Source: Gautieria morchelliformis (Eukaryota; Basidiomycota; Agaricomycetes; Gomphales; Gomphaceae). Taken from it: a DNA stretch of 64,000 nucleotides. The stretch is taken from positions 372,001-436,000 of the forward strand of contig WHVA01000012.1 in the NCBI GenBank assembly GCA_015179125.1. Reading direction: 5' to 3'. The notes beneath the pieces were generated by a model, which saw nothing but the letters and a program-made list of their open reading frames with translations, ran no database searches and was not told the origin of the DNA. Both the position numbers and the translations under genes were made by a program. Shown piece by piece: positions 38,110 to 46,859 of this stretch (position 1 is the stretch's first letter; each line of letters begins with the position of its first letter).

Positions 38110-39558
38110 ATTGTAGGTGAAGGCAAAAGAAGAAGACGAAAGATCGGTTAACAGTTCACTGAAGTTGTAAACGCAAGGTCGAAGAACAAATTGCTAGCGG
38201 TCTACGCTGGTAGTGTCTGAGGGCACTGCCGTCAAGTGAGGGACCGCCCTGCAAAACTGTGAGTACATATAGCGCAAACATTCGGCAAAAAGCCAACCTT
38301 TAAAAAGAGGGGGAGGGGGTTAGAGGGAAGAGGATTAGAGGGAAGGCGAGGGAAGGCGAACGGGAATGTCATGATGCTTTTGGCGAGAGATATAGCCATC
38401 GGAGTCGAAAGTTGTACCACTTGGTCGGCTCCATCAAACCTGCCGCGTGAGTACCGCCACGAACTCTAATTATGCGATGCTGTCATCTATCCGCTCTTAT
38501 ATATATCGGTTCTTCACTCTACAACGTTCTGGCTGGTGATTTCTTTCATGTTTGTGGTCTCGCAGAGTCGAGTCGAGTCGCCCGTCGGAGGCGTGTCATA
38601 AGTTATCGGTTGACCCTGCGGCATGAGCCAGACAGTGACGGGACATCAGGACCCCATGATATCCGACTATTTCGACAGAATATGTCGGTATGAAACAACA
38701 GCGCCTCGAACGGATTGGATCCATCATCTCCCACCCTGCAGCAGGCGCCCTGCTGCGATTCGCCAAGCCCGATCTGTATCAACCAAGGCAGCATCTAGCC
38801 TAGGTGCCTGTGTCGCGCAAGATTTGTTGCGCTCGTCGGGCCTGTCGTGGCTGGCACCTCGACGGTGATCTGCGGCTTAAGACTGTCGGCGACGAGATAG
38901 ATCGAGGGCTAGCCCACTGCTGCCATTCAGCGCTGCTGTCACACCTGGGTACAAATCCGTGAGATCAGGGTTCTGGTATCAAGGGTTACAAACGCAACAA
39001 TTGGGGTCCTGCTGGTGGCGAACAGTCTTCGGCAATCCAATATGGATGTCTATCATGATTGCCTAACCACTGAGTGCTCCGTATTAGTAAGCGCCGCTTC
39101 CAAGGCGACATGTTGACCGCTGGGAACGAGCTGCAGGTGGGGACTGTTTCACTTAGCATACCTGTCTCGACAAAGCAACGTTCGAGACATGCGCATGTTT
39201 CAGTGCTGGCATCCAACTGAAGAATTCGTTTCACCCGCATGCGACAAGGATATTCATCATTCAAATCATAAATACAACGGTCCAGGACCGCCAACAATCT
39301 AAGTGGTAGTATTACTACGACGCCCGAAATCCCCGTGAACATCGAGAAGAATTTTGAGCGCGTTCCGGGCGCTGTAACACAAGTAAATCGAGGTAGGCGA
39401 CCAAGATGCATGCGGACCCACCGGACACGCGATAAATCAGAGTCGCCAGAGGTTAGCATCGTTTCTAGTTGCCTTGGTTGCTCATCCCATGGGTACTGAA
39501 GGCGACTAGGTCGGACGGCAATAAACGGCGAGTCTAAGACGAAACTTACAGGAAGGAA
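38110..39558. other. Intergenic, with purine-rich tract
   Basis: A G/A-rich tract (38300-38362) lies about 200 bases upstream of the Thr-rich gene; on its coding strand it is a C/T-rich element of the kind found in strong fungal promoters. A 157-codon minus-strand frame (38986-39459) has no recognisable motif and is not called. Nothing else is seen. Confidence 0.4.
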
Positions 39559-42401
39559 CTACACGACCCAGAAGATCAGCTGAATATTTCAAATAAACAG
39601 AGTACAGCCAACCCACCTTGTGCAGATACTCGTACGCCACCAAAGTGAAACCGAACTGTGGACTACTCCGTAAAACACGGGCGAGGCCGCCCTTGAAAAG
39701 CGCCTTAGGGCCCTCTTCCCGGTCTTTGTCTTGGGTTAAACGCTATGTACTCGTCAATTCACACTACACACTCACAGATCTTTATGAACGCGTCCCCTAA
39801 ACCCTTGTACGTTGTTTGGCCCTTCCTTGCTTCAACTTGCAAGCGCGTCTTCACCACGTCTGATCGCAGTGTATCATGAAATGGTTATAGGTTGCCCGTT
39901 AGTGTGACCAGAACTGCAACGAGCATTTAGGCTTACCAGCGGGTGTGGTAAGATAGGCTGCTGGCATCCCGCTGAGGAGATTACGTCAAGAATCAAAGTT
40001 GCAACGGTGAGAGTCATATCCAAGCCTCGCCAACAAGCAAAACGCACGCAGCGGCAGCGGACCCCAATGTCTCGAAAAAAGACAGCTTTTTGCCATTGTA
40101 ACCCTCATGGAACAAATCTCGTTTGAGATGCGAGTAGGCTGAGGCGAAGGACTGAGAACATGCCAGAAGAGATAATTGCATACATACGCACCAGGGAAGT
40201 AGATGGCAGAGAAGGGGATATCACGTAGTAGACATGCCGAGGCTCCTCGGTACAATCCCAGCAAACCTAGTTGCTTCACTATATGGATCGCACCCCGTGG
40301 GACAGCACCTTCAGCTTTCGCTGCTTCGCCCTGTACCTGTAATCTGATCTTGCTACGGCCCCAGAGTTCGCATTTAAGATTCGCTGTATAATAGATGATG
40401 GCTCACACAATCTCTAGTGGATTTGTAAAGACCTACGAATGTATGTAAGGACGATGCTAATGGCTAGATATATCAGGGGCGATACGCACCACTTGGCAAC
40501 CTCCTGCAGTACCACCCGCAATTAGCTCCCACATCAGTTTAATTCTACCCGTCTCGGGGTCCATGGCTCTTCCGCGCACAAGATCGTTGACAGTCAACTT
40601 GATGGCTTTCTCAGGAGCGACACCCTGTAGCAACATTGGTATCTCTAGACAGGTTGTCACAAACGTATCTAGGAACGCACCACAAGCTGAGGTCCTAAGC
40701 CACGATAGAAGCCTAACGCCCCTTCATTTCGGAAAACCTTCTTCACGCAGTCCATGCTGTTCACATATAACAACTGGCCAACGACTGTACTGCGTTGATT
40801 CTGCATTCTACAGGCAAGGTTAGGGCATTGAAGCTGACCAAAGGTGACTAGGACAAACCGTGTCTAAAGAAATAAAAACACCGAATAAACTTTGAATGGT
40901 AAGCGAAAGCAACTAGAATTACCTTGACTATTGCACGCGTCAGGCAGAGGATTCCATGCTATATAGAGAACGCCGCTTACCCAGATCTATAGGATAGACA
41001 ATGGTGGCACCAAAGGACCCCGCAAGTCCTCCCAACAGGAAGTTATACGCAGAGTGAGCGAATCCTTGTAAAAACGATGTCACGTCTGCTACGGCCGGTT
41101 TTACTATTTCGTCCGATGGTGTCTTCCAGCGCGGATCGAGGAGCTGTGCGAAATCTAGGAGGGCAAGCCTTCGCGCGCCGCTTCCACGACCGGCAAAGTG
41201 GAAAATTATGGATGCCTCCATGGGACTGAAAATGCCGTAGCGTGTAGAGGAGGCTGCGTGGTTCAAGAAATCTACTTGGTCTATACGGCCATCTTTGGAT
41301 TTTGCCGTGGCCTCACGAATTACTCTGCAAAATGTCAGCTTAAGATTTGATGGAGTCTAGGCACACAAACCGCTCGACCATGTCCATATCTATGTTTAAA
41401 TAGTTGACAGAAGATAAAAACAAGAGTAACTTTGACACTCGTACCTCTAATTACGTTGTGAAATGCAATTACTTCCGAATACGATATACGTCCTCCTGGT
41501 GTTATTGTGCATAAAGTAGGCAATCGTTCAATCACCGCATCCGATAGTTTATGTCCAGCCAATTCCTATGAAAGTAGTCTTACGAGATGTCTGCCTAAAA
41601 GAAATGGAAGGACATACTACAATAATTCGTCGAAATTGCTCAGGACGAATGAAGCCATCCTGATTGTCGTCCAGATATTTGAACGCCTGTCGCAACCGTT
41701 CGCCCTGGAGACCCTTCATGAGTTGCGTAAACTCGTTATCTTAGAGATAGGTCAACCACAGTCTAGTCCAGCTCGGCGAAAAGCACTCACATCCGAGTAC
41801 ATGGGTTCCGTCCTTTTTGCCAAGGTATAATTTCACCCAATCACTGAAATGGCGATCAGATTGCCTTCAGAAAAAACGTCGTCGGAGGCGTACCAGTCAA
41901 AATCAAACGGTATGCTGCCAGGTCCAAGGTTTGCCGAAAATACATTCTTAAATTCGTCGTAAGTTATTGTCCCAGAACCATCTCTGAAGCGAAGACGATG
42001 AGAATTGTATAAGCGGATTCACGTCATGATACTCACATGTCAAAATATTGGAATGCCATCCAGTAATCAGCATCTGGCCGTTTGAGCATGGTCTCAAACA
42101 CGCAGAAATCATCCCAGGAAACAAGCCCGCGCCGAGAGCTATCAGCTACACGGAAGAGTATAGAGTACTGCGCGCGGTCAATTTTATCCAGATCACCCTT
42201 CGGCGCAATCGCATTGACAAATGTATCTTTGTCAAGGTACCTGTTGGCTTTGTTTGTAGCCATCACCGCCGAAAAGAACGTGAAGGCGTACTTTTGTCCA
42301 TTGACCTCCTTCTTGGAGTTTGTTTCAAACGTTCGCCTCCACCGTCTAAGCTCGCTTTCCGGAGCGGCGACTGTCTGCCTTATGGCATTAAGTGCTGACA
42401 T
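39559..42401 (-). CDS. AGC1: Mitochondrial aspartate/glutamate carrier (Agc1/aralar type) with EF-hands
   Basis: Exchanges aspartate and glutamate across the mitochondrial inner membrane as part of the malate-aspartate shuttle, with calcium control through its N-terminus. The first exon ([20 protein letters not shown]) leads into an EF-hand region, with canonical [11 protein letters not shown] near 41950-41990 and [13 protein letters not shown] near 41660. The three carrier repeats show YPIDLVKTRMQ, NPLEIVKIRLQ and [11 protein letters not shown], each with the expected charged residues; [16 protein letters not shown] follows the first. Repeat 1 is joined only if two successive 5-base exons are used (40923-40927 and 40859-40863). 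The end, after LVAYEYLHK, is a short last exon giving LIFWVV and stop at 39559. No sign of inactivation. Confidence 0.95.
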
Positions 42402-44258: not shown

Positions 44259-46859
44259 ATGTCTCGTGCGACACGACGTGCAGCTGGGGAAGCCGAACGC
44301 GGCCAGCACATGGTAGCTGATGCATCAATCGCTGAGCGAGGTCTGCCTGGGACTGAAACTTCAGGTATTGATGCCACTTTTGTCATTTTCTCTCATTATT
44401 GAAACCATACAAGCAAACTCGACTCAATTGCCCTCTGGCGATGACGATATTAAAACCACCACTCGAACCCAACAGGTCAAGCATTCGAATGCCTATTCTG
44501 ACCCAGGAGATAATTATTGGGATTCTACTGTCAGCACTTTGATTTACTCGCCCCACTGCGTGTGAACCTGACTGTATTACGCTTCTCTAGAGGCAGGGCT
44601 CCTTGGCTTACCTCGAGTTATCAGAAGATGACATTGCAACTGCTATGCATCGAATATCTGAAAAGCCTCCCACAGTTGGTCAGCTTCGCGGTACAAGTTT
44701 GCCTGGAAACAGTATGACCTCGTCCGTCTTCTATGCATTCCCCGCTGGTATGTATTTGGACTTCACAGCATGGCCGGTGGCTCACTAAAATGTCCAATTC
44801 CAGTCACAGCCGCCGCGTCTATTTTTTCTCCCATATCTCTCCTTATTGCATGCCTCATTTTGTTCCTATGGAGGCCCATCTTCCTGGAGCTTGGGTCAGC
44901 GATTCGGTTGAACGGCGGCAACTATGCATATCTTCTCCAGGTCAGTGGAACGACGCTAGGTCTCATTGGCGCTGCCGCGACATTACTTGACTCCGTCGCG
45001 ACATCTACCGAATCGGCGGCAACAGCGGCAAGTTACCTGAGAGGCGAATTTACATCATCCTTGACCGTCTCAGAGGCTTCAATCACTATTGCATTGTTAA
45101 CCGTTCTTGCCATTTTATGTCTCGTCAATGTGAGAAAGAGCAGTACACTGACCTTGTCGTTTTTCTTCATCCATGTCAGTAAATCCCTTGGTAGCTCTGA
45201 GTCAATTTTGACCTTCCGGATTCTCAGCTTCTTACCATGGCGATTCTGATGGTCGCTTCAGTAATAGTTTGGAGTCGACATGGATCTGACACTCTCAGAT
45301 CCAATTGGGACCTTAGGCCGCGAGGAACATCTAACACCGCAAGAGCCATATTCAACGGTATATGCGTAGGTTTCTTGGGTGTCACAGGTTCGTTCCATTT
45401 CGACTCCCATGGCCAGGACTGATATTCCGCCAGGCTTCGAGACCACACCAACCTATATCGAGGCTATCCATCCAGACGCTTATGGACCAGTACTCCGAAA
45501 CATTCTCTTTTGCACCCTCTTTTTGAATGCCCCCTTGATGTTAATGGTCTACGCTGTTCTTCCGGAACAAACCATCAACTCGGGGACAAATATCCTCTCT
45601 ATTCTAGCGGAAACTGTAGCGGGACGATGGCTAAGGATTCTGGTCGTCGTGGATGCCATTCTAGTTCTGGCCGGTGGCGTTATAGATGGGATCTGTTCAG
45701 GATGCGCATTGCTCGACAGGCTCGCAAAGTTAGGAGGGTCATTTTGGTTATTGTGGATGATATTGATTCGGTGTAATTGATGCAGAGATCAAGTATTTTC
45801 CGAGGCGCTATTGAAGACACTACCCGTCACTGGCTCCCAGTATCTCTTGATCATGTTCTGTTTTGCCCTCAACATCCTCCTATATGCAGCTTCTGGGTTC
45901 AGTCTCACGACGATCTCGGCTGTATTTACAGTCACCTTTTTGTCCACCCTTCTAATGGTACGCGCTGAAGGCTTTTAGCCCCTTTTGTTACTTACAGCAA
46001 CGCCCGACTAGTTTGTTTTGAGTGATATACTTCTCAAATTCAACCGCGATAGACTTCCACGCAGCCATAAACCTAGCCTTCTAGCAGTCTTCTTTACCTT
46101 GGCGGTAGTCATCGTGCTCCTAGTTGGTAACATCTTCCCAAAGTCAGTCCCGGCTGGCAGCTGCATGCCTCCCTGGTTGCTGTCACTGACCCGTGATTTT
46201 GCATTGACAGCCCCAAGATTCTGGCCTTATTCGCCATTTATTTCCTTGCAACGCTTCTCCCGCTTCTGGCAACGCAAGCAGAAGATCCAGCAGCCAGGGT
46301 GTTGTTATGGCTCTATTATCAATGCAGGCTACACAAACTGCGCTGGACTGAAGGTTGGGACATGAAAATTATTGATATTGTCAAACGCGCTCGTCGACAT
46401 CCCGTCTGCGTTTGGGTAGGTCGAGGCGATGTGAGTAATTTTATTCCTCGAGCGCTGTTTAGTTCATGGAAAACGACCTTCATCATCAGACTATGAACCT
46501 GATGAACTTCATACTTTATATCCGCAACAACGAAATCACTTCCCACGTCACCTTCGTGCATGCATACCGAGACATAGAATCGATCCCCTCGGAGCTGGCT
46601 CCGAACATCAAGTTATTAGACGAAGCATCGACATTTACTATTGATCTAATGTTCGTTCGTGGAAATTTTGAACCAGCAGTGAGTAGTTGGTGGAAATCTA
46701 TTGCATGAAAGGGGTGACTTACGACTGCCGCAGCTTGTGGAAGCCGTCAGTGCCAAGACGGGTATCCCTCGGAGCAAGATGTTCATGTCCTGCCCAAGCG
46801 AGAGCCATGGATGGGAGATAGGAGATTACCAGGGCGTCCGAGTGGTGACGAAATGTTGA
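44259..46859 (+). CDS. APC-superfamily amino-acid transporter
   Basis: A large multi-spanning permease of the fungal amino-acid/polyamine/organocation superfamily. The cytosolic N-terminus (MSRATRRAAGEAERGQHMVA) leads to YLELSEDDIATAMHRI, then the first helices with the APC glycine-rich strip (FLELGSAIRLNGGNYAYLLQ) and GTTLGLIGAAATLLDSVATS. NTARAIFNGICVGFLGVTG and a middle group of helices (ILFCTLFLNAPLMLMVYAVL) follow, then VIDGICSGCALLDRLAK and further helices to 46290. A soluble C-terminal part of about 150 residues (WDMKIIDIVKRARRHPVCVW to the stop at 46857-46859) goes beyond the transporter core. At least eight introns. Substrate cannot be deduced. Confidence 0.83.

What the first reader, a model, noticed from the sequence alone, without database searches (positions are those of the whole stretch)
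40808..40985. Two consecutive 5-nt micro-exons in the aspartate/glutamate carrier
The first carrier repeat must read PIDLVKTRMQNQR. On the minus strand PIDL plus one base ends at a GTAAGCGG donor (intron 40928-40980). The only way to supply VKTR is exon TCAAG (40923-40927), intron 40864-40922, exon ACACG (40859-40863), intron 40808-40858, then ATGCAGAAT. All three introns are 51-59 bases with GT..AG ends, like others in the gene, and reading through meets stops. Single micro-exons are known in basidiomycetes; two adjacent 5-nt exons coding a signature motif are striking, and automatic gene finders would miss them.
Basis: partly seen in the sequence, partly recalled or inferred. Interest (0 to 1): 0.8.

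Follow-up and report, generated by a model that had tools for sequence, protein, structure and literature searches.

The report
Twin five-letter exons in carrier gene
A fungal gene for a mitochondrial transporter splits four essential amino acids over two neighbouring exons of only five DNA letters each, and many public gene models of mushroom-forming fungi lose or garble those residues.

Summary
The carrier gene (minus strand) has two adjacent 5-nt exons, TCAAG (40927-40923) and ACACG (40863-40859), between GT-AG introns of 53, 59 and 51 nt. They supply VKTR in the first carrier signature. Of 927 GT/GC-AG splice paths one gives VKTR; by chance 0 of 20,000 GT-only and 1 of 20,000 GT/GC shuffles did. 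All 41 transcript-like relatives listed carry VKTR and, as guides, pick exactly these introns at intron penalty 14; at 18 or more the three guides tested prefer one GC-AG intron. The NCBI Gautieria morchelliformis protein equals my 664-aa model except that VKTR reads GK and FLP is missing: it lacks these two exons and a third, 9-nt, micro-exon. Of listed agaricomycete gene models 55 of 103 are broken here, against 0 of 41 transcript-like rows and 0 of 26 NCBI-sourced rows of an ascomycete search. Best reading: constitutive micro-exons, spliced sequentially; skipping either or both shifts the frame. Adjacent micro-exons are known in plants, so this is a new member of a known kind. No RNA of this species was available.

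The parts
40923..40927 (-). micro-exon 9, TCAAG (5 nt): last two bases of Val355 and Lys356
40859..40863 (-). micro-exon 10, ACACG (5 nt): Thr357 and first two bases of Arg358
40928..40980 (-). intron, 53 nt, GTAAGC..TAG, phase 1, CTNAY branch-like A 13 nt from the 3' end
40864..40922 (-). intron, 59 nt, GTAATT..TAG, phase 0, CTNAY branch-like A 37 nt from the 3' end
40808..40858 (-). intron, 51 nt, GTTTGT..TAG, phase 2, CTNAY branch-like A 13 nt from the 3' end
40981..41324 (-). exon 8 (344 nt), ends PIDL plus G
40681..40807 (-). exon 11 (127 nt), begins with the third base of Arg358, then MQNQR
39550..39558 (-). micro-exon 19, TTCCTTCCT (9 nt, Phe-Leu-Pro), also missing from the NCBI model
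39299..42401 (-). whole coding region, 21 exons, 664 aa: calcium-regulated mitochondrial aspartate/glutamate carrier
   Evidence: the stretch 40400-42391 matches only itself in the genome
40808..40976 (-). rejected single GC-AG intron (169 nt) that would explain the GK join of the public protein

Best explanation
The gene encodes the calcium-regulated mitochondrial aspartate/glutamate carrier (AGC1, SLC25A12/13 type) of Gautieria morchelliformis or a very near relative. Three short introns interrupt the first carrier signature, leaving two constitutive 5-nt exons, TCAAG and ACACG, that complete PIDL-VKTR-MQNQR. Shown here: the sequence, the uniqueness of the path, VKTR in all listed transcript-like relatives, and the absence of these residues from the public model. 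Inferred: the introns are recognised by intron definition (donor and acceptor paired over 51-59 nt) and removed one after another, since splicing complexes can hardly sit on both ends of a 5-nt exon at once. Computed: leaving out either or both exons (5, 5 or 10 nt) shifts the frame to an early stop; inferred: so only full inclusion gives a carrier with its signature lysine.
For: Unique path, 1 of 927; 0 of 20,000 GT-only and 1 of 20,000 GT/GC shuffles; 41 of 41 guides choose these introns at intron penalty 14; VKTR in 41 of 41 transcript-like proteins, 28 of which lie on contigs under 2.7 kb, shorter than the 3,103-nt span of the gene here; public G. morchelliformis protein identical elsewhere; Pfam repeat 1 gains 12-17 bits over three alternatives; VKTR lies in uninterrupted DNA in ascomycete-like contig L010 and in 26 of 26 NCBI-sourced rows of the search made with it; leaving out exon 9 or exon 10 gives 383 aa, both 369 aa.
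Against: No RNA from this species. The spliced aligner prefers one GC-AG intron (40973-40808, GKR) once the intron penalty reaches 18, in 3 of 3 guides tested, and every guide contained VKTR, so the guide test is only as good as that motif. 37 other GT-AG paths keep the frame open. The donor after exon 10 (ACG|GTTTGT) departs from the consensus, though the gene uses GTTTGT also at 41370. 'Transcript-like' is inferred from database source, unbroken frames and contig length, not from sample records; 13 of the 41 lie on contigs of 2,985-6,048 nt.
Confidence: 0.95

Rival explanations
1. The public model is right: one GC-AG intron (40976-40808) joins PIDLG to K-MQNQR, and the carrier lacks VKTR.
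For: Open in frame; NCBI protein P0001 reads so; an aligner with intron penalty 18 or more prefers a close relative of it, 40973-40808, in 3 of 3 guides.
Against: 169-nt GC-AG intron in a gene whose other introns are 46-77 nt GT-AG; removes the signature lysine's place in the motif; Pfam repeat 1 drops from 88.8 to 71.8 bits; 0 of 41 transcript-like relatives have anything but VKTR.
Confidence: 0.02
2. Both products exist: a regulated switch between micro-exon inclusion (carrier) and a shifted donor that gives an in-frame protein without VKTR.
For: A shifted join keeps the frame here; 33 of 34 two-residue replacements in public models begin with Gly, as a shifted donor predicts.
Against: All of those are gene models; none of 41 transcript-like rows shows it. 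Only the best 120 rows per search were listed, and the databank is clustered at 90% identity, so minor isoforms could be unseen.
Confidence: 0.03
3. A single micro-exon or a longer exon, or an assembly error, hides a simpler structure.
For: Short exons are easy to misjudge; only one assembly was at hand.
Against: No single exon in the interval gives VKTR; the rest of the protein is letter for letter the NCBI record.
Confidence: 0.01

Closest known systems
Adjacent 5-nt and 12-nt micro-exons in rice and of peptidase M1 genes in Zygnema and land plants (PMC8831610, PMC11096116; passages read)
   Same: Two neighbouring ultra-short coding exons, overlooked wholly or partly by genome annotation, verified by RT-PCR or RNA-seq.
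   Different: Plants and a streptophyte alga; another gene; 5+12 nt. The pair here is 5+5 nt in a fungus, without RNA proof in the species.
Single-nucleotide exon of Fusarium CYP621A (PMC12940212; abstract and passages read)
   Same: Fungal ultra-short exon inside a conserved motif, wrong in nearly all gene models, inferred from a phase mismatch.
   Different: Ascomycete, one exon of 1 nt, supported by SRA reads.
Micro-exons of Phanerochaete chrysosporium P450 genes (PMC1184071; passages read, abstract passage included)
   Same: Basidiomycete (agaricomycete, recalled), frequent introns of 45-55 bp, small exons; shortest reported 6 bp.
   Different: P450 family; no adjacent 5-nt pair in the passages read.
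Trichoderma virens Xlr2 micro-exon (PMC11121469; start of abstract and two passages seen)
   Same: Micro-exon in a filamentous fungus.
   Different: Alternative, glucose-dependent; here inclusion appears constitutive.
Metazoan aralar/citrin, SLC25A12/13 (PDB 4p5x, 4p5w by sequence)
   Same: EF-hand regulatory domain of the same carrier type.
   Different: The exon structure of the animal genes was not examined.

Membership tests
Micro-exon (internal exon of about 15 nt or less) | Short internal exon flanked by AG and GT of introns typical for the gene | tested here: met
   5 and 5 nt; introns 53, 59, 51 nt against 46-77 nt for the other 17
Micro-exon (internal exon of about 15 nt or less) | Coding sequence needed for the mature protein | tested here: met
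   VKTR in 41 of 41 transcript-like relatives; leaving the exons out gives early stops
Micro-exon (internal exon of about 15 nt or less) | Inclusion seen in RNA of the species | not testable with these tools
   no RNA reads of Gautieria among the tools
Mitochondrial aspartate/glutamate carrier (AGC, SLC25A12/13) | N-terminal EF-hand domain followed by three mitochondrial carrier repeats | tested here: met
   EF-hand families and three Mito_carr stretches, 241.3 bits; Aralar1 chain 4p5x matches residues 52-318 and Aralar2 chain 4p5w residues 80-318 of the uncorrected 683-aa query
Mitochondrial aspartate/glutamate carrier (AGC, SLC25A12/13) | Carrier signature PX[DE]XX[KR] in each repeat (motif recalled) | tested here: met
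   PIDLVK, PLEIVK, PADVVK in the 664-aa model; the first depends on the micro-exons
Mitochondrial aspartate/glutamate carrier (AGC, SLC25A12/13) | Aspartate/glutamate exchange | not testable with these tools
   needs a transport assay
Stwintron (intron nested in a splice site of another intron; definition recalled) | No exon sequence kept between the nested introns | tested here: not met
   5 and 5 coding bases are kept and encode conserved residues

The most novel reading that the evidence does not exclude
The tandem pair is ancestral to Agaricomycetes and has been kept through the radiation of mushrooms, so that making the aspartate/glutamate carrier depends on strictly ordered splicing of two 5-nt exons; failure gives only frameshifted mRNA or an in-frame product without the signature lysine, so splicing fidelity could tune carrier dosage. 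What the evidence allows: 55 of 103 listed gene models break at this spot, in many orders (orders recalled, not looked up); 33 of 34 two-residue replacements begin with the Gly predicted for a phase-1 intron after PID[LM]-G; six models keep TR but have altered residues before it, as an intron between K and T could produce. DNA of the other species was not available, so conservation of both exons is inferred, and regulation is a guess.
Probability: 0.3. Interest if true: 0.7.

Novelty: new member of a known kind. Interest (0 to 1): 0.48.

Why it matters
It is a concrete, checkable case of a conserved carrier signature that about half of the listed public gene models of a fungal class get wrong (55 of 103), with a likely simple cause: loss of 10 nt is masked by moving the donor four bases. 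It offers a natural test of how intron definition handles two exons too short for splicing complexes to bind at both ends, and a marker motif (PID[LM]-G-x-MQNQR) for finding broken models.

Tried and rejected
Second gene copy or allele as a conservation test: none found; the stretch 40400-42391 (1,992 bases) matches only itself in the genome. DNA of relatives: none in viral contigs; one ascomycete-like contig, L010, in prokaryote genome contigs, without introns at the motif. Chance: rejected. Single-exon or GC-AG solutions: rejected on conservation and Pfam score, although one search shows that an aligner with a high intron penalty favours the latter. My own first gene model (683 aa) wrongly retained intron 42291-42241 and misplaced one acceptor; it was corrected, but searches used the uncorrected protein. 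Trm5 as neighbour: models fusing the two in other species suggested it, but the one PF02475 match found in this genome is on another contig. A bacterial promoter/terminator scan was of no use here. Not done: structure prediction, a genome-wide micro-exon survey, a taxonomy look-up of the rows (class and order names beyond those printed are recalled).

Full report
Observation. The minus strand reads ..CCT ATA GAT CTG G|gtaagc..tag|TCAAG|gtaatt..tag|ACACG|gtttgt..tag|A ATG CAG AAT.., at exactly the coordinates given. The three introns are 53, 59 and 51 nt; all 20 introns of the final model run from GT to AG and the other 17 measure 46-77 nt. CTNAY branch-like motifs are present in all three (13, 37 and 13 nt from the 3' end) and in 7 of the other 17 introns, so the motif is weak evidence.

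Gene model. A hand-built model was corrected by spliced alignment with P0002, a protein 85% identical to the uncorrected query. The result is 21 exons, 42401-39299, 664 aa, with EF-hand families and three Mito_carr stretches, hence a calcium-regulated mitochondrial aspartate/glutamate carrier. The 664-aa protein differs from NCBI P0001 (named Gautieria morchelliformis) only at VKTR, which reads GK there, and by loss of FLP. So the window comes from that species or one very near it, and the public protein lacks what the three exons of 9 nt or less encode. The GK join fits a GC-AG intron 40976-40808; the record's own exon coordinates were not seen.

Is it more than chance? Splice paths between PIDL and MQNQR with introns of 40-200 nt and at most four introns were listed: 290 with GT donors, 927 with GT or GC; one gives VKTR. 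Of these, 38 and 113 stay open and end in QNQR, so frame alone does not decide; the residues do. In dinucleotide shuffles of the interval, with the first six and last three bases fixed, 0 of 20,000 (GT) and 1 of 20,000 (GT or GC) gave a VKTR path of 10 nt in one or two exons.

Independent evidence. Three protein searches gave 4,238, 4,095 and 3,597 proteins, of which only the best 120 each are listed. The first two, made with this carrier and with P0075 (Ceratobasidium), gave 144 distinct rows, all counted: 41 of sources lgn (34), jgi (6) and ena (1), called transcript-like here, and 103 others with NCBI, UniRef or nr entries, called gene models; one of these (P0135) has no contig listed. VKTR is exact in 41 of 41 transcript-like rows and in 48 of 103 gene models (Fisher p 3e-11, but rows are related, not independent; P0001, the public version of this very gene, is among the 55 broken ones). 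28 of the 41 lie on contigs under 2.7 kb, too short for a 3.1-kb genomic copy with this many introns; the other 13 lie on contigs of 2,985-6,048 nt, and their cDNA nature rests on the unbroken frame. As a control, the third search was made with the ascomycete-like L010: 26 of 26 NCBI-sourced rows (23 with a name, 3 without) have VKTR; of the 94 other rows 91 have VKTR, two have IKTR or AKTR, and one does not span the motif. All three queries contained VKTR, which may favour intact rows slightly. Along the protein, among 643 columns filled in at least 97% of 35 transcript-like rows, the most often gapped in 85 NCBI models were Lys (38%) and Val (36%) of VKTR, then the three FLP columns (22-24%), then Arg (8%) and Thr (6%) of VKTR, whose places are partly filled by the stand-in residues; the 99th percentile was 4% (uncorrected numbering).

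The error has a signature. Of 55 broken models, 34 replace VKTR by two residues, and 33 of those start with Gly. A donor moved four bases to the next GT of G|GTnnGT would read GGT (Gly) plus one codon and restore the frame lost by skipping 10 nt. This points to a phase-1 intron at the same place in those species; it is an inference, since their DNA was not seen, and in this genome the shifted site is GC, not GT. The remaining 21 are varied: three have a single Gly, six keep TR after altered residues (VMTR, VTTR, VITR, GKTR, DLSTR, ETR), two lack the stretch, and ten show other insertions or replacements. That both exons, not one 10-nt exon, exist elsewhere is therefore possible but not shown; the 48 intact models may or may not have the micro-exons.

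Spliced alignment. With intron penalty 14, all 41 transcript-like guides (105 aa around the motif, VKTR included) return exactly the three introns. For the three guides tried at other settings, penalties 6, 10 and 14 give the same, and 18, 22, 26, 30 and 40 give one GC-AG intron 40973-40808. This trade-off is a likely reason why gene finders fail, and it shows that the guide result depends on the penalty. Pfam repeat 1 scores 88.8 bits with VKTR, 71.8 with GK, 72.3 with GKR and 76.5 with VYSV.

Mechanism. Leaving out exon 9 or exon 10 gives 383 aa, leaving out both 369 aa, each ending soon after the join. The order of removal and the need for sequential splicing are inferred from exon size. 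In the solved ADP/ATP carrier, PIERVK aligns with PIDLVK, so Lys356 is the signature basic residue; its role in the matrix-side salt-bridge network is recalled knowledge. Repeats 2 and 3 also carry introns at their signatures (40406-40353 in the Val codon of PLEIV, 39936-39860 in the Asp codon of PAD), so intron crowding at these motifs may have created the micro-exons; this is inference.

Literature. Ten searches of the held library were answered. Passages were seen of PMC8831610 and PMC11096116 (adjacent 5- and 12-nt plant exons), PMC12940212 (1-nt Fusarium exon), PMC1184071 (P450 micro-exons, shortest 6 bp), PMC11121469 (Trichoderma), and PMC4014442 and PMC3990503, whose single mention of micro-exons is a read-mapping option. 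[quoted passage not shown] In the titles and abstract starts listed (searches listed 20 of 25 and 20 of 36 papers; one search found none) I saw no adjacent micro-exon pair in a basidiomycete or in this carrier.

Verdict. The finding is real, well supported and correctly interpreted. It is a new member of a known kind, raised in interest by the adjacency of the two exons, by their place in a signature motif and by the widespread annotation error.

Noticed in passing
39558-39550: A third micro-exon, TTCCTTCCT (9 nt, FLP), in the same gene; skipping it is in frame and the NCBI protein lacks it. Its three columns are gapped in 22-24% of 85 NCBI models but in none of 35 transcript-like rows.
   Followed up: partly
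40406-40353 and 39936-39860: Introns also interrupt the carrier signatures of repeats 2 and 3, in the Val codon of PLEIV and the Asp codon of PAD.
   Followed up: no
L010 (NYXK01000071.1): A contig filed under a deltaproteobacterial MAG encodes a carrier piece 88% identical to that of the ascomycete Lachnellula suecica: likely fungal contamination.
   Followed up: partly
P0034, P0074, P0093 (other species): Gene models that join the carrier to a Trm5-type tRNA methyltransferase domain, PF02475, probably neighbouring genes run together; in this genome the one PF02475 match found is on another contig.
   Followed up: partly
44770-45249 and 45379-45780 (+): Two reading frames matching AA_permease_2, probably exons of one amino acid permease gene upstream of the carrier on the opposite strand.
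   Followed up: no
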